Virus record (IMG/VR): IMGVR_UViG_3300030107_007488
Coordinates: 1-30,918 of that record
Source of the DNA: a virus
Direction: 5' to 3' (one strand)
Length of the DNA: 30,918 nucleotides
Each line of letters starts with the position of its first letter. Positions within the stretch are counted from its first letter, which is position 1. Below are positions 5,732 to 27,795 of this stretch, piece after piece. Both the position numbers and the translations under genes were made by a program. The notes beneath the pieces are model-generated. The model was not told where the DNA came from. It searched no databases and was given only the letters and a program-made list of their open reading frames with translations.

Positions 5732-7456
5732 ATGGCTAATACAATTCGGATCAAAAAACGATCATCAAGTGGTGACGCAGGTGCTCCCGGTACGTTAGCA
5801 CCTTCAGAAATTGCTTTTAATGAGAATAGTAGTGACTTAACACTTTGGTACGGGTACGGTGATGATGGTGATGGAACCTCCTCATCAGTAATTGCTATTG
5901 GCGGTTCAGGAGCCTTCTTTAATAAAACAGATACAAGAACAGCAAATACAATTCTTAGTGGGCCAACTACAGGAAGTGCCGCAGCTCCAACATTTAGAGC
6001 ATTAGTAGCTGCTGACATCCCATCAATAGCACATACAAAAATATCTGATTTTGATACAGGAGTCCAAGTAAATAGGCTTGATCAAATGGCCGCACCAACA
6101 GGTGCTGTAGGTTTCAACAGTCAGAAGATTACAGGTTTAGCCGATTGTACTGCTGACGGTGATGCAGCAAATAAGGGTTATGTCGATGGGGTTGCTCAAG
6201 GCTTAGATATTAAAGATTCAGTTAAAGCATCAACTACAGCAAATGGTACATTAGCAAGTGCTTTTGCTAACGGACAGACAATTGATGGTATTAGTCTTTC
6301 TACGAATGACAGGATTCTAATAAAAAATCAGAGTACGGCTTCAGAAAATGGTATTTATAAAGTTAACGCATCTGGCGCACCAACAAGAGCAACAGATTAC
6401 GCAACAGGTAGTGATGCTGCTGGAACATTTACTTTTGTTGAACAGGGCTCAACAAACGCAGATACAGGCTGGGTTTGCACTACTAATAAAGGGTCAGCAG
6501 TTGTAGGTACAAATGATTTAGCTTTTTCTCAATTTAGTGGCGGAGGTTCAGTTACTGCTGGGGATGGATTAGATAAATCAGGCAATACTCTTTCTTTAGA
6601 TTTAAAAGCTAACGGTGGTTTAGTTATTGAGTCCACTGAAGTTGCAGTTGATCTAGCTGCTAGTTCTATAACTGGAACGCTTGCTGTCGGAGATGGTGGA
6701 ACTGGTTCAACATCAGCAAGTGCAGCTCGAACTTCTCTCGGTTTGGTGATTGGTACGAACGTACAGGCATTTGACCAACAGTTAGCAGATGTCGCTGGTT
6801 TAGCTGTAACTGATGGTGGTTTTATTGTTGGTGATGGTTCTAATTTTGTTTTGGAAACGGGGGCAACCGCAAGAACTTCCATTGGCGCACAAGCATCAGC
6901 ATCAGATTTAACAAATTTATCTTCTTGTCAATCAGGAGGTTCTTCAGCCTTAGCTGCTCTAACTTCAACAGAGATTGAGATTCTTGACGGTGCCACTGTT
7001 TCGACTGCTGAATTAAATATTCTTGATGGTGTGACAAGTACAACTACTGAGCTAAATATTCTTGATGGTGTTACTTCTACGGCTACTGAATTAAATATTC
7101 TTGATGGTGTAACAAGTACAACTGCTGAATTAAATCTTCTTGATGGAGTTACTGCAACAACCTCAGAGTTAAATATTCTTGACGGCGTAACGAGTACCAC
7201 ATCAGAGTTAAATATCTTAGATGGAGTCACATCTACAGCAACAGAGTTAAACGTACTTGATGGTATTAATGCAACGACAACAGAATTAAATTTGATGGAT
7301 GGGGGTACTTCGGCTACCTCGACAACTCTTGCATCTGCTGATCGTTTTGTTTGTAATGACAATGGAACGATGAAACAGGTTGCACTGTCTGACCTTGTAA
7401 CTTATCTTGAGGATGGTTCGACTTCTGGTTTTGATGTAGATGGAGGAACCTTCTAA
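5732..7456 (+). CDS. Tail fibre protein with nine 13-residue ELNILDG repeats
   Basis: 574 residues. The N-terminus (ANTIRIKKRSSSGDAGAPG) is an Mtd-like anchoring module shared with neighbouring genes. A central region about 120-270 resembles the phage fibre module with GLADCTADGDAANKGYVDG and a following beta domain of the WVCTTNKG type. Residues 412-526 are nine tandem copies of a 13-residue unit, consensus STTTELNILDGVT, expected to form an extended trimeric shaft. The protein ends FDVDGGTF. TAATG couples it to the next ORF, whose Shine-Dalgarno GGAGG lies within this gene's last codons. Role: host-recognition fibre. Confidence 0.85.
   Translation: MANTIRIKKRSSSGDAGAPGTLAPSEIAFNENSSDLTLWYGYGDDGDGTSSSVIAIGGSGAFFNKTDTRTANTILSGPTTGSAAAPTFRALVAADIPSIAHTKISDFDTGVQVNRLDQMAAPTGAVGFNSQKITGLADCTADGDAANKGYVDGVAQGLDIKDSVKASTTANGTLASAFANGQTIDGISLSTNDRILIKNQSTASENGIYKVNASGAPTRATDYATGSDAAGTFTFVEQGSTNADTGWVCTTNKGSAVVGTNDLAFSQFSGGGSVTAGDGLDKSGNTLSLDLKANGGLVIESTEVAVDLAASSITGTLAVGDGGTGSTSASAARTSLGLVIGTNVQAFDQQLADVAGLAVTDGGFIVGDGSNFVLETGATARTSIGAQASASDLTNLSSCQSGGSSALAALTSTEIEILDGATVSTAELNILDGVTSTTTELNILDGVTSTATELNILDGVTSTTAELNLLDGVTATTSELNILDGVTSTTSELNILDGVTSTATELNVLDGINATTTELNLMDGGTSATSTTLASADRFVCNDNGTMKQVALSDLVTYLEDGSTSGFDVDGGTF
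6965..7309 (+). repeat. Nine tandem 39-bp units encoding ELNILDG repeats
   Basis: In-frame tandem repeat, residues 412-526 of the fibre gene. The first unit is diverged (STEIEILDGATV) and the last is degenerate (TELNLMDGGT). The protein units are nearly identical while codons differ between copies (aatattcttgatggt versus aatatcttagatgga). Confidence 0.9.
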
Positions 7457-9796: not shown

Positions 9797-10201
9797 ATGG
9801 CAACCCAAGTTCAATTCCGAAGAGGCTCAACTAACGATACTGCCAGCTTCACAGGTGCTAACGGTGAAGTTACAGTTGATATTGATAAAAAAGTCTGCGT
9901 GGTTCACGATGCTTCGACTGCAGGGGGTGTCGCATTACTTAGAGAAGATGGTTCAAACTCATCTTTTCTACCAGGTTCTCTTGCAGATTGCGCTTTAAAA
10001 TTCCAAGGAGATCCAAATACTGGATTAATTTCTCCGTCAGCCGACCAGATTGGACTTGTGACAGGAGGTGTTGCTAGGCTTACAATAGATGGAGGTGGAT
10101 CTGTTTCTATTCCCGGTAACGTTTCTATAACAGGAGACGTGACGGTTTCAGGCAAGTTCACTTCTGATGACAACCTCGCTCTCATTGTTGCCTTAGGCTG
10201 A
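9797..10201 (+). CDS. Fibre-type protein with Mtd-like N-terminus
   Basis: 134 residues. ATQVQFRRGSTNDTASFTG and GEVTVDIDKKVCVVHD are the anchoring module seen in neighbours. It is followed by FQGDPNTGLISPSADQIGL and RLTIDGGGSVSIPGNVSITG, the standard T4-like fibre element in which a D-N/D-T-G-(L/F) segment leads into a beta shaft (the same phrase, DQDTGFFL, occurs in the giant fibre). Likely a short fibre subunit or fibre linker. It ends two bases before the next gene. Confidence 0.75.
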   Translation: MATQVQFRRGSTNDTASFTGANGEVTVDIDKKVCVVHDASTAGGVALLREDGSNSSFLPGSLADCALKFQGDPNTGLISPSADQIGLVTGGVARLTIDGGGSVSIPGNVSITGDVTVSGKFTSDDNLALIVALG

Positions 10202-10592: not shown

Positions 10593-13500
10593 ATGTATAT
10601 CGGGAATGACTTGCAGGTAGCTTATCCAAGCTACCTGATTATTGATGATATAAGTTCTGGGTTTAATGGGAGCACAACTTCTTTTGCCTTACAAGTTAAT
10701 GGCGCAGTACCAGTACCATTCCCGATCAATGCTCAACAGTTAATGCTTTCGGTTAATGGTACTATCCAAGAGCCAGATCCTACGGGTTCTGCAGGGTTTA
10801 AACTGCTAGGTCAAAATATTGTATTCAGTTCGGCACCTGCTAACGGTCATGCTTTCTTTGGTGTTATTTTAGCCGGTTCTGATTACGTTACTGCTGGTAC
10901 TGAATTCCCTGATGGAACCGCCCCATTCCCCTCATTTACTTTCCAAAGTGATCAAGACACAGGGTTCTTCCTAATTGGTGCTGGGGATGTAGGCTACACT
11001 TCTAGCGGTACTCAGATACTAAATTACAACAGCACTGGATTAAATCTAGGAGATAATAAGAAAGTACTCTTAGGTACTGGTAGTGATTTTGAGTTATATT
11101 TTGATGGTACTAAAGCAATATTAGATTCTAATTCTGCATCGCTATTTTTAGACACTGGAAAGGTTGGTATCGGTGTAGTTCCATCTGCAAGTGAAGGAGC
11201 TGAGCTTTCTATAAAAAATAGTGATGGGCAAACTAATATTGCATTAATACCAAATGCAGATAGTGAGAGCTCTCAAATTAGCTTTTATAATGCAGCTAAT
11301 AACTCTTCACAAGGTTACATAAAATACGACAATAATGATAATTCTCTCCAATTTAGAGTTAATTTACAAGAACGCTTTCGCATACTCTCGACAGGAGCAG
11401 TTGGCATAGGTACAACTACTCCCACTGCTTCGTTACACGTTAAAGGCACAGGAACAGATATTTTAACAATCGAATCTACTACTACTGGTGCTGCAGGAGC
11501 TAATTTAAAGCTGCATCATAGCCCTGGTGCAGGAAATATGGCTGACAATGATGTTGTCAGCTTACTTCAGTTTTCTGGTGTAGATGATAGTAATAACGCT
11601 GTTACATACGCCTCAATTAGGACAATTGCAACTGATGTTTCTAATAATGCTGAAAAGGGTGATTTAACGTTCTTTACTCGTCGTAGTTCTTCTTTCTTAG
11701 AGAGGTTGCGTATCACATCAGATGGAAGACTTATAGCTGGTGCTAGTACTGCTGATTCTTCTGCGTTGCTTAGTATTTCTAATGATACTACTGAAGTTTT
11801 AGCAAACGATGAGCCACTTTATAACAATGCTAGTCCAGCGTTTTTAACTATATATAATAGTAATAATACTGGAACTGGAGAGGAAGCAGGCATAAATATT
11901 ATTCCTGCTGGAAGTGCTAGTGGTGCAATATCGATTTATGGAAAGAAAACTGGGAGTAATTCTGGTGATTTAATATTTAGATTTAGAAGTGGTGCTTCAA
12001 CAAGTGCAGAGAGGTTACGCATTACATCAGATGGTATACTGCGGGGTGGTTCTGATGCTCAGAATAATACAACTTTTGGAACGAATGCGGGTGATAGTTT
12101 TAGCGGAACAGATGCACAAGGTAATACTTTAATTGGTAAAGATTCAGGAACAGCACTAACTAGTGGAGATTATAATACTGCACTTGGAAGAAATACTTTA
12201 GCTGCTTGTACGACTTCAAGTTATAACACAGCTGTTGGTAATAGTGCTTTAGCTGTAACAACAGGTGCTGAGAATACTGCTGTTGGTGATAGTGCTTTAT
12301 TTACTAATTCAAGTGGCGGAGAAAATATTGCTATTGGCCGGTTTGCATTATATTCAAGTACTACTTCATCAAATAATACTGCTTTAGGAACTAACTCCCT
12401 GTATTCCAACACAACAGGGGCGAATAACGTTGCTATTGGTAGGCGTTCACTTTATACGTCTACAACTGCATCTAATAATGTTGCTGTTGGTTATCAGGCA
12501 TTGTATGCAAACACAACAGGAACACGGAACACAGCAGTTGGTTCTTTAACTTTAGATGCAAATACAGAAGGAAATGATAACACTGCAGTTGGTCAATATG
12601 CCATATCTGAAAATACTACTGGTTCCCAAAACACTGCTTTAGGAACTAACTCATTAGATGCAAATACAACTGCGGATAATAATACGGCTATTGGTTATAA
12701 TTCATTATCAGCAAATACAACAGGAGTTAGTAACACGGCGGTTGGTTCTCAAGCTTTAAATGCAAGTACAACTGCTAGTAATAATACAGCTATAGGAGCT
12801 AATACTTTATTATCAAATACAACGGGAGCATACAATATTGCTGTTGGAACATATGCTTTAGATGCTAATACTACTGGATCTGAAAATACTGGCATAGGTT
12901 ACGGGGCGTTGTCTACAAATACAACTGCTAACAATAATGTTGCTGTAGGGTCTAATTCTCTAAATGCAAATGACACGGGAGCTAATAATGTCGCTGTTGG
13001 TAATGACTCGTTAAAATTCAGTACTACTGGAGATAATAATGTTGCAATAGGATATCAGTCATTAACTTCAAATACTACTGCGGATTCTAACACTGGAATT
13101 GGACACCAAGCACTGAAATCAGTTACGACAGGTACAGGTAATGTCGCTGTTGGTACATATACATCTGATGCTTTAACAAGTAATAGTTATACAACAGCAG
13201 TGGGTTTTAATGCATTAACTGCTAATACAGCTAATAATAATTGTGCTATTGGTTCTTATTCATTAACTACTAATACGAGTGGTGACTACAATACTGCTTT
13301 AGGTTATTCAGCTTTAGAAAAAAACACTACAGCATCAAATAATACTGCTGCTGGTTATAAAGCATTAGAAGAAAATACAACAGGTGCTGATAACACTGCT
13401 GTAGGATTTGAATGTTTAACTGCGAATACGACAGGAATTAATAATGTCGCTGTTGGTAGTCTTTCTTTAGATGCAAATACAACTGGTAATCACAATACTG

Positions 13501-15902
13501 CTATAGGTAAATCTTCATTAAGTGCCAATACAGAAGGTATTGAAAATACAGCTCTTGGATCACAGGCTTTAGCTGCAAATACAACTGCGAATAATAATAC
13601 GGCTGTTGGTCGAGATGCTTTATACACTAATACAACAGGAGCTAAAAATACAGCGCTTGGCTCTCATTCTTTAAATTTAAATACAACTGCTAGTAATAAC
13701 ACTGCAGTTGGATATTATTCATTACGAGCGAATACTACTGGATCTGAAAATGTTGCCGTTGGTTATTATGCATTAAGTGCGAATACAGAGGGAGGCAATA
13801 ATTGCGCTTTTGGTAGAGCTGCTTTAGGTTCAAACACTACTACTCATAATAATTGTGCTTTTGGCGATTATACTTTACAGGCAGCTACATCATCCAGTAA
13901 TACAGCATTAGGTCATAGAGCTCAATATACAACAACAACAGGAGAACAAAACATAGCTGTAGGAATCAATACTCTGTATGCCAATACAACTGGATCACAA
14001 AATGTTGCAGTAGGAGCATATGCATTAGATAGTAATACAACAGCTTCATTTAACACTGCAATTGGAGCTGGTGCTTTAAGTGGTGATAATACAGGAAATA
14101 ACAATACTGCTATTGGTCATAATGCATTAATAACTAATACAAGCGGATCGGAAAATACTGCGGTTGGGAGGCTAAGTTTATATTCCTGTACCGCAGGAAA
14201 TAATAATATTGCAATGGGTTATTCAGCTCTTTGGGGTGTTACGGAAGGTACTTACAACGTAGCGATAGGTAATTATGCATTAGATGCTAACACCACAGCA
14301 TCTTATAACGTTGCTATTGGATCAAATGCGTTAGGTGCAAGTACAACTGCAGCAGAAAATACTGCTATCGGATATAATGCGATGACTGGGACAACCACAG
14401 GCGGATATAACGTAGCTGTAGGTGGATCTGCATTAGATGCAAATACTACTGGCGAACATAATGTAGCTATAGGTTCTTCTTGTTTAGGAGCTACTTCTAC
14501 TGCCAGCAGTAATACTGCTGTTGGTAGACAATCAATGCAACTTACTACTACAGGTACTCAAAATGTTGCTGTTGGTCGATTAACTTTACAAGCAAATACT
14601 ACGGCAAGCAATAGCGTGGCAATCGGATATGAAGCTTTAAAAGCTATTACTGAAATTGGTGGACAAACTGCTGTAGGTCATAGCGCATTAAAAGCTAATA
14701 CAACAGGACAAAATGGTGTTGCAGTTGGACAAGATGCTTTATTATCAAATACAACAGGAAGTTATAACGTAGCTATTGGTCATTCTTCATTAGATGCAAA
14801 TACAGAGGGAGGGAGTAATACTGCTTTAGGAACGTCTACTTTAGGAACAAACACAACTGGAAGTAGTAATACAGCAATAGGTCAAGGAACTTTATTTGCA
14901 AATACGACTGCTAGTAATAATACTGGCGTAGGCTATTTTGCCTTAAATGCAAATACAACTGGTCAAGAGACTACAGCTGTAGGAGCACGGGCATTAGAAG
15001 CTAATACTGTAGATTACAGTACTGCTGTTGGGTATGCAGCCCTGTTTTCTAATACATCAGGTGCGAGTAATTCTGCTTTTGGAAGAACAGCTTTATATAC
15101 GAATGCAACAGGAACCGATAATAATGCCTTTGGTAAAAATGCGTTGTATGCGAATACTGCTAATGACAATAATGCTTTTGGAGTAGCTGTTTTAGCAGCA
15201 AATACCACTGGTACTCAAAATACAGCAATGGGTCACGTTGCGTTAGATGCTAATACAACTGGTAGTTATAATACTGCTATTGGTGCCAATAGTCTCACAG
15301 CTAATATAACAGATAGTGATAATACTGCAGTCGGGCATGATTCATTAAGAGTATGTAATGGAGGAGCCCAAAATACTAGTGTTGGGTCTGCTTCTGGAGA
15401 GGCTTTATCTACAGGAGACAATAATAGTTTCTTTGGAGATTCAGCTGGAGATACCGTAACTACAGGGGATAATAATATTTGTCTTGGATATAATTCTCAA
15501 CCAACTGGAGCAACCGAAGATAATGAAATTACATTAGGTAATTCATCTAACGATGTTTTACGTTGTCAGGTTACCTCTATTACTTCATTATCTGACGAAA
15601 GAGATAAAACAGATATTGTAGATTTACCTATCGGAATAGATTTTCTAAATACTCTCCGCCCAGTTAAATTTACTTGGAAGACTAGAGAAGGAGTTCCTAG
15701 TAAAGATGGGACTCAAAAAGCTGGCTTTATTGCACAAGATTTACAAAAAGCTCAGAATGATGCAGGTGTCTCTGAGTACATGCGTTTAGTATTAGACACT
15801 AATCCTGATAAATTAGAGGCAAGTCCTGGGCATTTGATTCCTGTCCTTGTTCAAGCAATTAAAGAGTTATCAGCAAAAGTCACTGCCCTCGAAACTGCGT
15901 AA
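10593..15902 (+). CDS. Giant tail fibre: virion anchor, ~67 YadA-head-like repeats, C-terminal S74 autoprocessing chaperone
   Basis: 1769 residues, the largest gene. The N-terminal ~115 residues (DDISSGFNGSTTSFALQVNG) match the head of the protein at 16223 and are probably the virion-binding module. Residues 115-510 alternate fibre modules (FQSDQDTGFFLIGAGDVGY; LRITSDGRL and LRITSDGIL, two copies). Residues 511-1644 are about 67 units of 17 residues, consensus NTAIGxxALxANTTGSx, like trimeric YadA-head beta-rolls. The C-terminus carries a peptidase S74/EndoN-type intramolecular chaperone: Ser1667 and Lys1672 in SDERDK form the expected dyad, then KAGFIAQDLQKA and a coiled coil. Known chemistry: trimerisation, then self-cleavage before the Ser. 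Role: long host-recognition fibre. Confidence 0.92.
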   Translation: MYIGNDLQVAYPSYLIIDDISSGFNGSTTSFALQVNGAVPVPFPINAQQLMLSVNGTIQEPDPTGSAGFKLLGQNIVFSSAPANGHAFFGVILAGSDYVTAGTEFPDGTAPFPSFTFQSDQDTGFFLIGAGDVGYTSSGTQILNYNSTGLNLGDNKKVLLGTGSDFELYFDGTKAILDSNSASLFLDTGKVGIGVVPSASEGAELSIKNSDGQTNIALIPNADSESSQISFYNAANNSSQGYIKYDNNDNSLQFRVNLQERFRILSTGAVGIGTTTPTASLHVKGTGTDILTIESTTTGAAGANLKLHHSPGAGNMADNDVVSLLQFSGVDDSNNAVTYASIRTIATDVSNNAEKGDLTFFTRRSSSFLERLRITSDGRLIAGASTADSSALLSISNDTTEVLANDEPLYNNASPAFLTIYNSNNTGTGEEAGINIIPAGSASGAISIYGKKTGSNSGDLIFRFRSGASTSAERLRITSDGILRGGSDAQNNTTFGTNAGDSFSGTDAQGNTLIGKDSGTALTSGDYNTALGRNTLAACTTSSYNTAVGNSALAVTTGAENTAVGDSALFTNSSGGENIAIGRFALYSSTTSSNNTALGTNSLYSNTTGANNVAIGRRSLYTSTTASNNVAVGYQALYANTTGTRNTAVGSLTLDANTEGNDNTAVGQYAISENTTGSQNTALGTNSLDANTTADNNTAIGYNSLSANTTGVSNTAVGSQALNASTTASNNTAIGANTLLSNTTGAYNIAVGTYALDANTTGSENTGIGYGALSTNTTANNNVAVGSNSLNANDTGANNVAVGNDSLKFSTTGDNNVAIGYQSLTSNTTADSNTGIGHQALKSVTTGTGNVAVGTYTSDALTSNSYTTAVGFNALTANTANNNCAIGSYSLTTNTSGDYNTALGYSALEKNTTASNNTAAGYKALEENTTGADNTAVGFECLTANTTGINNVAVGSLSLDANTTGNHNTAIGKSSLSANTEGIENTALGSQALAANTTANNNTAVGRDALYTNTTGAKNTALGSHSLNLNTTASNNTAVGYYSLRANTTGSENVAVGYYALSANTEGGNNCAFGRAALGSNTTTHNNCAFGDYTLQAATSSSNTALGHRAQYTTTTGEQNIAVGINTLYANTTGSQNVAVGAYALDSNTTASFNTAIGAGALSGDNTGNNNTAIGHNALITNTSGSENTAVGRLSLYSCTAGNNNIAMGYSALWGVTEGTYNVAIGNYALDANTTASYNVAIGSNALGASTTAAENTAIGYNAMTGTTTGGYNVAVGGSALDANTTGEHNVAIGSSCLGATSTASSNTAVGRQSMQLTTTGTQNVAVGRLTLQANTTASNSVAIGYEALKAITEIGGQTAVGHSALKANTTGQNGVAVGQDALLSNTTGSYNVAIGHSSLDANTEGGSNTALGTSTLGTNTTGSSNTAIGQGTLFANTTASNNTGVGYFALNANTTGQETTAVGARALEANTVDYSTAVGYAALFSNTSGASNSAFGRTALYTNATGTDNNAFGKNALYANTANDNNAFGVAVLAANTTGTQNTAMGHVALDANTTGSYNTAIGANSLTANITDSDNTAVGHDSLRVCNGGAQNTSVGSASGEALSTGDNNSFFGDSAGDTVTTGDNNICLGYNSQPTGATEDNEITLGNSSNDVLRCQVTSITSLSDERDKTDIVDLPIGIDFLNTLRPVKFTWKTREGVPSKDGTQKAGFIAQDLQKAQNDAGVSEYMRLVLDTNPDKLEASPGHLIPVLVQAIKELSAKVTALETA
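12123..15524 (+). repeat. About 67 tandem 51-bp units (17-residue NTAxG repeats)
   Basis: In-frame array, residues 511-1644 of the giant fibre. Most units are exactly 17 codons; several are 16. Neighbouring units often alternate between an ANTTG ending and an NTTAS ending, giving a 34-residue higher-order period over parts of the array. Units differ at the DNA level. Confidence 0.92.
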
Positions 15903-21943: not shown

Positions 21944-22141
21944 ATGGCCCTTGTTCAAGAATCGTCCAAGCCTAGTGAGGAAGAACTAAGGGCTTATCTA
22001 CGTAGTTATGCTGAAAGTATTCCTCAGAAAATGGAAGATCATATAAGCGAGCGTTCTACAAAAATTGGTGAGACTGATTTATATGGTAAGAAGCCTTCTA
22101 CTGTTGCAGAGAAGGTTAGAGATGGTGTTTTAGTATTTTAA
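21944..22141 (+). CDS. Hypothetical small helical protein
   Basis: 65 residues: SSKPSEEELRAYLRSYAESI, then EDHISERSTKIGETDLYGKK and VAEKVRDGVLVF. Charged and helical, no motif. It starts 4 bases after the HNH stop and overlaps the convergent 2OG oxygenase by 4 bases (22138-22141). Confidence 0.6.
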   Translation: MALVQESSKPSEEELRAYLRSYAESIPQKMEDHISERSTKIGETDLYGKKPSTVAEKVRDGVLVF

Positions 22142-22965
22142 TCAATTAAGCTCCAGCTTCTCCACCATTTCGTAAGTATGTATTTAGAACCGCTTTTTGG
22201 TGGTAATGCTTCGTGTGTCGTTTTATAGTTAGGTTCTCCATTTTTATAAAGATTGTTCCATGCTAATAATGTTCCTCTTTTCGGTTTTAATTTTAAATTT
22301 AGATATTTAAAGTAAGTTTCTCCTCCCTCTTCTACATCATTTAGGTAAAGCATTGTCGTCCAAGTTCTTTGTCCCATAAATTCACAATAAGTATCATATT
22401 CTTTTTTTGCTCTAGGGCAGAAAAAATCAAAGTGTTCTTTGTAATATTCTCCTATTTTATACTTTTGCCCTTGTGTAACCTCTCCTAATCCGAAGTCCAG
22501 TCCTAAAGCGCAGGATAATTTTGCGTCTAATATATCTATTAAATCTTTTTTCCCAATATGTATGTGCGCGGTACTACTAGTTCTGTAGTTAGTTATTAGT
22601 TGTTTATCTTGTTTATTAGCTACAGTTGATGGTATTGCGGTTTCATTAATATGTTCAATTATTTCGTCACAATCTTCTTTTGTCACAAACTTTTCTATTG
22701 TATACAACTGTACTAGGTTAGTATCTACTTTTTTTGCTAATTTTGTTATCCGATTGTTGTAAAATTTCTCATAGTCAATTTCTTTTGGTTTCGTTTTAAA
22801 ATTACATAACTCAAATAATTTTTTTATTTCTTTATTACTTAATTTAAAGTTATTCCTATAGGTTCTTTCTAATAGCGTCCTTGAACTACCAGAGGTTGCA
22901 GAGTTTATGCAATGTGGGATCAAATTCTCTATAGGGTAGGTAGTCATCTTTATTTTATGCTTCAC
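22138..22965 (-). CDS. 2-oxoglutarate/Fe(II) oxygenase, prolyl 4-hydroxylase-like
   Basis: 275 residues (ATG 22965; ATG 22947 is an alternative). Residues about 90-270 form the P4H-type double-stranded beta-helix: YTIEKFVTKEDCDEIIEHI, then NYRTSSTAHIHI, GQKYKIGEYYKEHFDFF with His178 and Asp180 of the iron-binding HxD, EEGGETYF, KPKRGTLLAWNNLY, and the distal His251 (NYKTTHEALPP) with Lys261 as 2OG ligand. The reaction is hydroxylation of a substrate with 2OG, O2 and Fe(II). Such genes are common in cyanophages. The substrate is unknown: a virion or host protein is most likely. The first 90 residues have no recognised motif. The catalytic set is complete. Confidence 0.85.
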   Translation of the reverse strand: MKHKIKMTTYPIENLIPHCINSATSGSSRTLLERTYRNNFKLSNKEIKKLFELCNFKTKPKEIDYEKFYNNRITKLAKKVDTNLVQLYTIEKFVTKEDCDEIIEHINETAIPSTVANKQDKQLITNYRTSSTAHIHIGKKDLIDILDAKLSCALGLDFGLGEVTQGQKYKIGEYYKEHFDFFCPRAKKEYDTYCEFMGQRTWTTMLYLNDVEEGGETYFKYLNLKLKPKRGTLLAWNNLYKNGEPNYKTTHEALPPKSGSKYILTKWWRSWSLID

Positions 22966-26820: not shown

Positions 26821-27795
26821 ATGGGTCAATTAATACCTGATATGGATATTCTTTTATCAGGAGGTGCAAAAAAACCTTTAAAAGAATTACAGGTAGGAGA
26901 TACAGTTCAGACCCTTCATCAAGATACTTTAGAAAAAAAAGATGCTAAAGTTAGCTATGTGAGGGTTATTGACTCTCCATTGCTTTCTTTAACTCTTTCA
27001 GGAAAAGAATTTATTTGTTCAGAAGAAGATAGGTTTTATGCCACTAATTTAAATAGATGGGTACATGCTTCAAGTCTATTAGAAGGCGATAAAATTTCTC
27101 AATTAGATGGAGAAGTCAAATTTGAAGGGAAGAAAAAGATAGGAAAAGGTGAATCAGTTGAGTTAACTGTTGATGATGCTCATACCTACGTATGTGATGG
27201 TATTTTAATGCATAATAAAGGGGGTAGACCATCTCCTCCAGTAGTTGTAATACCCCCTCCTCCTCCCCCTCCAGAAATTGTAGAGAACGTAACTCCTGCG
27301 GAAACTTATAAGATAGCTGCTGATTCTTTAAATAGAGCTAGAGAACAGTCGTTAGCTTATAGAGATAAATGGGACGCTATGGGTTTAGGTGCCGAGGATA
27401 TCGCTTTACGTAAAGCTCAAACCGAATATAGATCAGCCCAAAATGCTAGAGTATTAGAGGAGGCGCGTAATCCTTCCTTGAGAGGTCCATCATCAGGGGC
27501 TGGTTTCGCTGGATCTACAAATGGAGAAGGTGGTGTAGCTGGATATGACCGTTTAGCTGAAGCTGAAAAGGCTCTCTATGCAGCTCAGGATTACAAAACT
27601 CAAGCTGACGCAGATCAACGAGAGGTTAGATCTCAACGAGAACCTATTAAACCAGCTTGGGAAGATACTGATTGGCTGGAGATAAGAAAACCTTATGATG
27701 AATACAACATAGAAAATAAAATCCCATATGAAGATCCTGGCCCTGAAATATATGAAATAAGAGGTGGTAAAAAGCAACCAGTCGCTGAGGCATAA
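26821..27795 (+). CDS. Hint-domain protein lacking the N-side splicing residues, with Pro-rich and helical C-terminus
   Basis: 324 residues. Residues 1-132 follow a Hint/intein fold: IPDMDILLSGGAKKPLKELQ then VGDTV, LSGKEFICSEEDRFYATN, RWVHASSLLEGDKI, and DDAHTYVCDGILMHN, ending at His131-Asn132 followed by KGG. The usual Cys at the start is absent (the position reads Gln3), and the block B His reads Arg71, so normal splicing is not expected; the C-terminal HN pair and His121 are kept, which could allow Asn cyclisation and cleavage before Lys133. Then a Pro run (VVVIPPPPPPPEIVENV), a helical stretch rich in Ala/Arg/Glu (AREQSLAYRDKWDAMGLG, AEKALYAAQDYKTQ) and an acidic end. Virion or processing role is speculative. 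Confidence 0.75.
   Translation: MGQLIPDMDILLSGGAKKPLKELQVGDTVQTLHQDTLEKKDAKVSYVRVIDSPLLSLTLSGKEFICSEEDRFYATNLNRWVHASSLLEGDKISQLDGEVKFEGKKKIGKGESVELTVDDAHTYVCDGILMHNKGGRPSPPVVVIPPPPPPPEIVENVTPAETYKIAADSLNRAREQSLAYRDKWDAMGLGAEDIALRKAQTEYRSAQNARVLEEARNPSLRGPSSGAGFAGSTNGEGGVAGYDRLAEAEKALYAAQDYKTQADADQREVRSQREPIKPAWEDTDWLEIRKPYDEYNIENKIPYEDPGPEIYEIRGGKKQPVAEA

What the first reader, a model, noticed from the sequence alone, without database searches (positions are those of the whole stretch)
12123..15524. About 67-unit trimeric adhesin-like repeat array in a self-processed phage fibre
Counted by eye, roughly 67 units of 17 residues (consensus NTAIGxxALxANTTGSx) make up two thirds of a 1769-residue fibre, followed by an S74 dyad (Ser1667, Lys1672). 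YadA-head-like beta-rolls are known from bacterial adhesins; an array of this length in a phage fibre with autoprocessing is unusual. Alternation of ANTTG and NTTAS endings suggests a 34-residue super-repeat created by past duplications. Repeat number may vary between relatives and tune fibre length or host range.
Basis: partly seen in the sequence, partly recalled or inferred. Interest (0 to 1): 0.7.

Follow-up and report, generated by a model that had tools for sequence, protein, structure and literature searches.

The report
Long repeat fibre in marine phage
This is a long but otherwise ordinary member of a widespread family of virus fibres: a shaft built from about 67 copies of a 17-residue repeat, followed by a folding-helper domain predicted to cut itself off once the fibre has assembled.

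Summary
One ORF (10593-15902, 1769 aa) carries 67 repeat units in exactly the stated interval (aa 511-1644): 65 canonical (60 of 17 residues, 5 of 16) plus one degenerate unit at each end. A Peptidase_S74/intramolecular chaperone domain follows, starting exactly at Ser1667, with Lys1672 five residues on.

An eight-unit slice is predicted as a regular solenoid, one coil per 17 residues. YadA_head (PF05658) is sub-threshold in the window but hits 2 of 43 related segments (best 2e-6), so "YadA-head-like, with 17- not 14-residue coils" is fair. Membership of the YadA family and trimerisation are not shown.

The claim that such a phage fibre is unusual fails. Array-plus-S74 matches three PHROGs, 130 phage records (SPO1, P-SSM2, pelagiphages), giant-virus proteins and bacterial genomes; a YadA-like plus S74 pelagiphage figure appeared in 2014. 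Sixty-six units ranks 7th of 82 complete viral ORFs (median 31, maximum 95). The 34-residue super-repeat is not supported. No exact repeat exceeds 21 nt and synonymous sites are strongly diverged: the array is old and assembly collapse unlikely. Repeat number varies from 0 to 95 behind one N-terminal domain.

The parts
10593..15902 (+). fibre gene, 1769 aa, self-processing tail/virion fibre
   Evidence: PHROGs 23837, 4636, 6002 (virion structural / tail spike) at 1e-178 to 1e-237
10593..11048 (+). conserved N-terminal domain (MYIGNDLQVA..., about aa 1-152), probable virion-attachment end; shared by 44 IMG/VR loci whose downstream parts differ
   Evidence: attachment role inferred
11049..12065 (+). 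connecting region, aa 153-491 (aa 247-312 matches the start of PDB 8ojn, E 3e-5)
12066..12122 (+). degenerate first unit (NTTFGTNAGDSFSGTDAQG, 19 aa)
   Evidence: sequence
12123..15524 (+). repeat array, 67 units of 17 (five of 16) residues, aa 511-1644
   Evidence: fold model
15525..15590 (+). short cap between array and cleavage site (EITLGNSSNDVLRCQVTSITSL, aa 1645-1666), predicted tip of the mature fibre
   Evidence: sequence, alignment A3; tip role inferred
15591..15899 (+). Peptidase_S74 / intramolecular chaperone, aa 1667-1769; dyad Ser1667 and Lys1672; C-terminal helix from about aa 1745

Best explanation
A modular fibre of a marine tailed phage. The conserved N-terminal domain fixes it to the virion (inferred). 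The array folds as a solenoid with one coil per 17-residue unit (modelled), most likely as three parallel chains (inferred from the S74 domain), giving a rigid shaft of roughly 67 x 4.8 A, about 32 nm (spacing taken from the YadA-type roll of BpaC). The S74 domain trimerises through its C-terminal helix, sets the register of the three chains so that the roll can nucleate, then cuts itself off before Ser1667 (inferred from the conserved dyad and from homologues that do so), leaving a fibre whose distal end is the array plus a cap of about 22 residues. Core positions are held by selection while four positions per unit drift almost freely. Unit number and array content change by recombination between fibres over long times rather than by recent slippage.
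For: Repeat and S74 anatomy. S74: Ser, Asp, Arg, Lys of SDxRxK invariant in 11 sequences; profile matches to solved S74/ICA domains 7dc3 (MyRF), 3gud (phage neck appendage), 6f45, 8jov, 6eu4; model matches 3gud and 7dc3 at probability 1.00, though at E 0.02-0.05; the 3gud chain begins at the residue aligned with Ser1667. MyRF S587/K592 and endoNF S911/K916 have the same five-residue spacing; in MyRF both residues are needed for cleavage, and cleavage needs a trimer (PMC8326128). Array: AlphaFold2 mean pLDDT 80, pTM 0.75, strands every 17 residues; 53 viral predicted structures with E <= 0.001, many named S74 or intramolecular chaperone proteins, including P-SSM2's fibre. Selection: mean pS 0.60, pN 0.00-0.18 at positions 1, 3, 5, 9, 13 but 0.66-0.68 at 6, 7, 10, 16. 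Recombination: L080/L083 share 98.4% over 2.8 kb of array plus C-terminus and differ upstream inside the array; L097/L128 share 99.0% over 1.8 kb and part inside the array.
Against: No trimer model could be made. No solved structure matches the array at E < 1 (best is the ryegrass ice-binding protein 3ult, E 1.2, probability 0.84, TM 0.59). The window's own match to YadA_head is below the curated cut-off (17.6 versus 25 bits). Abrupt breaks inside arrays of relatives could be assembly chimeras in metagenome contigs. Which structure of the virion the fibre belongs to is not shown.
Confidence: 0.8

Rival explanations
1. The array is itself the receptor- or surface-binding part: a long multivalent adhesin face made of the freely varying positions, not a passive shaft.
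For: Only about 22 residues lie between the array and the cleavage site, so no separate tip domain is seen (sequence). Positions 6, 7, 10 and 16 are about as variable at nonsynonymous as at synonymous sites. In YadA-type adhesins the roll is the binding head (established knowledge; PMC9543794).
Against: Free drift is also what a structural shaft with unconstrained surface loops would show; pN does not clearly exceed pS. Other fibres on the virion could do the binding (neighbouring tail-fibre genes).
Confidence: 0.3
2. The array is a left-handed beta-helix of the hexapeptide type (as in gamma-carbonic anhydrases, LpxA) rather than a beta-roll.
For: Weak sequence matches to LbH domains: PF25084 E 0.07 and 11 of 43 segments; gamma-carbonic anhydrase E 0.084.
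Against: Only two short strands per 17 residues in the model, not three; LbH chains give TM 0.15-0.24 whereas the ice-binding protein 3ult gives 0.59; YadA_head is hit at 2e-6 by a related segment.
Confidence: 0.1
3. The array length is an assembly artefact.
For: Repeats in a metagenome contig; many related contigs end inside this gene.
Against: Units are 56% identical in DNA on average, longest exact repeat is 21 nt, no repeated 25-mer; arrays of 60-95 units recur in independent contigs.
Confidence: 0.04

Closest known systems
PHROG 23837 / 4636 / 6002 phage fibres; P-SSM2 tail spike YP_214529, HTVC112P and HTVC111P tail fibres, Venkman gp55, SPO1 gp2.52
   Same: Same 17-residue unit and C-terminal S74 motif
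   Different: Cultured examples read here have 9 to 32 units (about 50 in the uncultured AG-345-L05); this one has 66-67 and a different N-terminal domain from the cultured ones
Pelagiphage tail fibres with YadA-like and S74 domains (Evidence for metaviromic islands in marine phages, 2014, PMC3909814)
   Same: Marine phage fibre with conserved N-terminus, repeats and a YadA-like domain; S74 listed among the domains of that figure
   Different: T7-like N-terminal domain PF03906 there; unit count not given in the text read
YadA-type left-handed parallel beta-roll heads of trimeric autotransporters (YadA, BpaC)
   Same: One invariant Gly per coil; similar G-x-N-x-(T/V)-A-(I/V)-G motif; long arrays exist (BpaC 42 coils, PMC9543794)
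   Different: 14-residue (UspA1 15) coils there, 17 here; autotransporter membrane anchor there, S74 domain here
MAT fibres of Bdellovibrio (PMC10769870)
   Same: Trimeric fibres, one group ending in a self-cleaving S74 domain with SDxxxK motif
   Different: Bacterial surface proteins with other beta-helical tips
Lolium perenne ice-binding protein (3ult)
   Same: Best solved-structure neighbour of the array model
   Different: Plant protein; E 1.2, 19% identity; no evidence of ice binding here

Membership tests
Peptidase_S74 / intramolecular chaperone autoprocessing domain | sequence match to PF13884 above cut-off at the C-terminus | tested here: met
   45.7 bits, cut-off 22, aa 1667-1725
Peptidase_S74 / intramolecular chaperone autoprocessing domain | Ser-Lys dyad five residues apart at the domain start | tested here: met
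   Ser1667, Lys1672; invariant in 11 sequences
Peptidase_S74 / intramolecular chaperone autoprocessing domain | fold of solved ICA domains | tested here: met
   3gud, 7dc3 at probability 1.00, TM 0.41-0.59, E 0.02-0.05; profile E 4e-11 to 4e-4
Peptidase_S74 / intramolecular chaperone autoprocessing domain | autocleavage and trimerisation | not testable with these tools
   needs bench work
17-residue repeat + S74 phage fibres (PHROG 23837, 4636, 6002) | array of 17-residue N(T/V)A(V/I)G units | tested here: met
   17 is the commonest spacing in 82 of 82 complete viral ORFs
17-residue repeat + S74 phage fibres (PHROG 23837, 4636, 6002) | array followed by S74 | tested here: met
   SDxRxK near the C-terminus in 66 of 82 complete viral ORFs, this one included
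YadA head (PF05658) | match above curated cut-off | tested here: not met
   best 17.6 bits versus 25; none in hmmscan of the array up to E 10; but 2 of 43 related segments match, best 2e-6
YadA head (PF05658) | 14-residue (15 in UspA1) coils | tested here: not met
   17-residue coils, five of 16 (PMC9543794)
YadA head (PF05658) | one invariant Gly per coil | tested here: met
   Gly5 in 60 of 60 17-residue units
YadA head (PF05658) | trimeric left-handed parallel beta-roll | tested here: inconclusive
   monomer model is a regular solenoid with about two strands per coil; handedness and trimer not tested

The most novel reading that the evidence does not exclude
The array is not a shaft but the binding surface itself: self-cleavage exposes a fibre whose whole length is a ladder of freely varying residues, exchanged between phages by recombination inside the repeats, so that host binding evolves by swapping blocks of coils.
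Probability: 0.2. Interest if true: 0.5.

Novelty: new member of a known kind. Interest (0 to 1): 0.25.

Why it matters
It puts numbers on a very common but little-studied fibre type: a unit length fixed at 17 residues across viruses and bacteria, unit number ranging from 9 to 95 in the array-bearing phage proteins measured, core and free positions defined, and arrays that look old and mosaic. That makes fibre length and block exchange testable in cultured phages such as P-SSM2, HTVC112P or SPO1.

Tried and rejected
34-residue super-repeat: no parity signal in protein or DNA identity, no neighbour effect for TTA units in the window. Recent tandem expansion: rejected, pS 0.60 and no repeated 25-mer. 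First alignment of overlapping slices (A1) slid out of register and was replaced by non-overlapping slices (A2). Profile scan of viral contigs with A2 failed for lack of a conserved stretch; a consensus-like 66-residue query worked. A 10-bp hairpin just inside the fibre gene folds well (z -4.2) but is absent from orthologues, so it was not pursued. No Rfam match and no tRNA in the window. Ice binding, suggested by the top fold hit, was not taken up: E 1.2 and no other support.

Full report
What is there. The window is a 30,918-base IMG/VR virus record. One ORF, 10593-15902 (+), encodes 1769 residues. Segmenting on the N-x-A-x-G core gives 65 canonical units at aa 528-1627, of which 60 have 17 residues and five have 16; one degenerate unit on either side inside the interval makes 67, as counted by eye. 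A further 19-residue unit precedes at aa 492-510. Position 5 is Gly in all 60 units of 17; Asn1, Ala3, Leu9 and Thr13 are nearly fixed.

Is it real and how old is it. Units share 46% of residues and 56% of bases on average; the longest exact repeat in the array is 21 nt and no 25-mer occurs twice. Tandem Repeats Finder therefore sees only a small part of the array. Mean synonymous difference between units is 0.60 against 0.38 nonsynonymous; nonsynonymous difference is 0.00-0.18 at positions 1, 3, 5, 9 and 13 and 0.66-0.68 at 6, 7, 10 and 16. The array is thus old, held by selection at its core, and unlikely to be miscounted by short-read assembly.

Super-repeat. Identity of units at even lags equals that at odd lags (permutation p 0.49 for protein, 0.35 for DNA). 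TTA units show no neighbour effect in the window. A looser test on residue 15 gives p 0.017, and four of the ten arrays tested avoid neighbouring TTA units at p 0.006-0.03, without correction for ten tests. A 34-residue duplication unit is not supported.

The C-terminal domain. Pfam Peptidase_S74 matches aa 1667-1725 at 8e-12, its first position on Ser1667. Ser, Asp, Arg and Lys of SDxRxK are invariant in the 11 sequences aligned. A profile of them finds solved S74/ICA domains, and the model of the C-terminal 162 residues finds 3gud and 7dc3 with probability 1.00 though E 0.02-0.05. In the match to 3gud, a phage neck-appendage chaperone, the chain's first residue aligns with Ser1667. MyRF S587/K592 and endoNF S911/K916 have the same spacing; mutation of either MyRF residue stops cleavage, and cleavage needs a trimer (PMC8326128). 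Cleavage before Ser1667 is therefore likely but is inferred here.

The fold of the array. Eight units, aligned with 42 non-overlapping segments from the window and relatives, give an AlphaFold2 model of mean pLDDT 80, pTM 0.75, with a strand of three at the start of each unit and a second short strand or bridge about nine residues later. Against solved structures the only fair match is the ryegrass ice-binding protein (TM 0.59, probability 0.84, E 1.2), which from general knowledge is a beta-roll; hexapeptide helices match badly. Against viral predicted structures 53 match at E <= 0.001, many annotated as S74 or intramolecular chaperone proteins, in phages and giant viruses. The YadA_head model scores 17.6 bits in the window, under its cut-off of 25, but two of 43 segments match it, best 2e-6. 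YadA-type coils have 14 residues with one invariant Gly (PMC9543794). By motif, G15-x-N17-x-T2-A3-V4-G5 here can be lined up with G1-x-N3-x-T5-x-x-G8 there, the extra three residues falling in the other half (my reading, not a test). A distant relative with a longer coil is the best description. Three-fold assembly could not be modelled.

How common it is. The protein matches three PHROGs at 1e-178 to 1e-237 and 130 phage records. Among records read here, SPO1 has 9 units, CRP-7 20, HTVC112P 27, HTVC111P 29, Venkman and P-SSM2 32, AG-345-L05 about 50. Over the loci fetched here, 82 complete viral ORFs have a median of 31 units, maximum 95; the window, with 66 by that counter, is seventh; 17 is the commonest spacing in all 82 and 66 have SDxRxK near the end. 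These loci were chosen by similarity to the query, include duplicates (68 after removal) and are not an unbiased sample. A marine phage fibre with a YadA-like domain, with S74 among the domains of the same figure, was published in 2014 (PMC3909814).

Variation. The N-terminal domain (MYIGNDLQVA...) occurs in 44 IMG/VR loci. Behind it stand 95 units (L018), at least 69 (L020, cut by the contig end), 34-41 in several, 17 or 18 (L046-L049), and none in 13 complete ORFs. No close relative of the window's array was found: DNA-level similarity to these orthologues stops about 320-475 nt into the gene. Elsewhere, L080 and L083 share 98.4% over 2.8 kb of array and C-terminus but not upstream, and L097 and L128 share 99.0% over 1.8 kb and part within the array; L128 also appears frame-shifted near its end. 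This fits recombination within arrays, but chimeric assembly is not excluded.

Working model. N-terminal attachment, a shaft of about 67 coils (about 32 nm at 4.8 A per coil, the layer spacing reported for BpaC), a 22-residue cap, and an S74 domain that trimerises, sets the register and cuts itself off. Shown: anatomy, S74 homology, selection pattern, variation in number. Modelled: solenoid. Inferred: trimer, cleavage, length, orientation. Open: whether the array itself binds the host, since no separate tip domain lies before the cleavage site.

Host and setting. Nearest named relatives of neighbouring genes are cyanophages (S-EIVl 58% identity; Synechococcus phages at about 40%), and the N-terminal region also meets cyanophages and pelagiphages weakly. 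The host is not settled.

Noticed in passing
window 6980-7291: A second protein repeat, 13 residues (TTTELNILDGVT type), in the 574-aa tail/virion protein 5732-7456.
   Followed up: no
window 9797-10201: 134-aa protein with the N-terminal domain of the major tropism determinant (PF18454, 8e-10); no sign of the rest of Mtd.
   Followed up: partly
window 10614-10637: Perfect 10-bp hairpin at codons 8-15 of the fibre gene, RNA fold z -4.2, not present in orthologues.
   Followed up: yes
window 26821-27795: 324-aa protein with a sub-threshold HINT-type match (PF07591, 25.3 versus 27.7 bits).
   Followed up: no
window 22138-22965: 2OG-Fe(II) oxygenase gene (PF13640); this kind is also listed among genes of the variable islands of marine phages in PMC3909814.
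   Followed up: no
L063 and L068: The P-SSM2 fibre gene is one ORF of 1098 aa but two ORFs (594 and 522 aa) in the nearly identical P-SSM5.
   Followed up: no
L149-L227: The same 17-residue repeats in many bacterial genomes, mostly Bacteroidota, SDxRxK near the end in 34 of 58 complete ORFs, up to 84 units (L170).
   Followed up: partly
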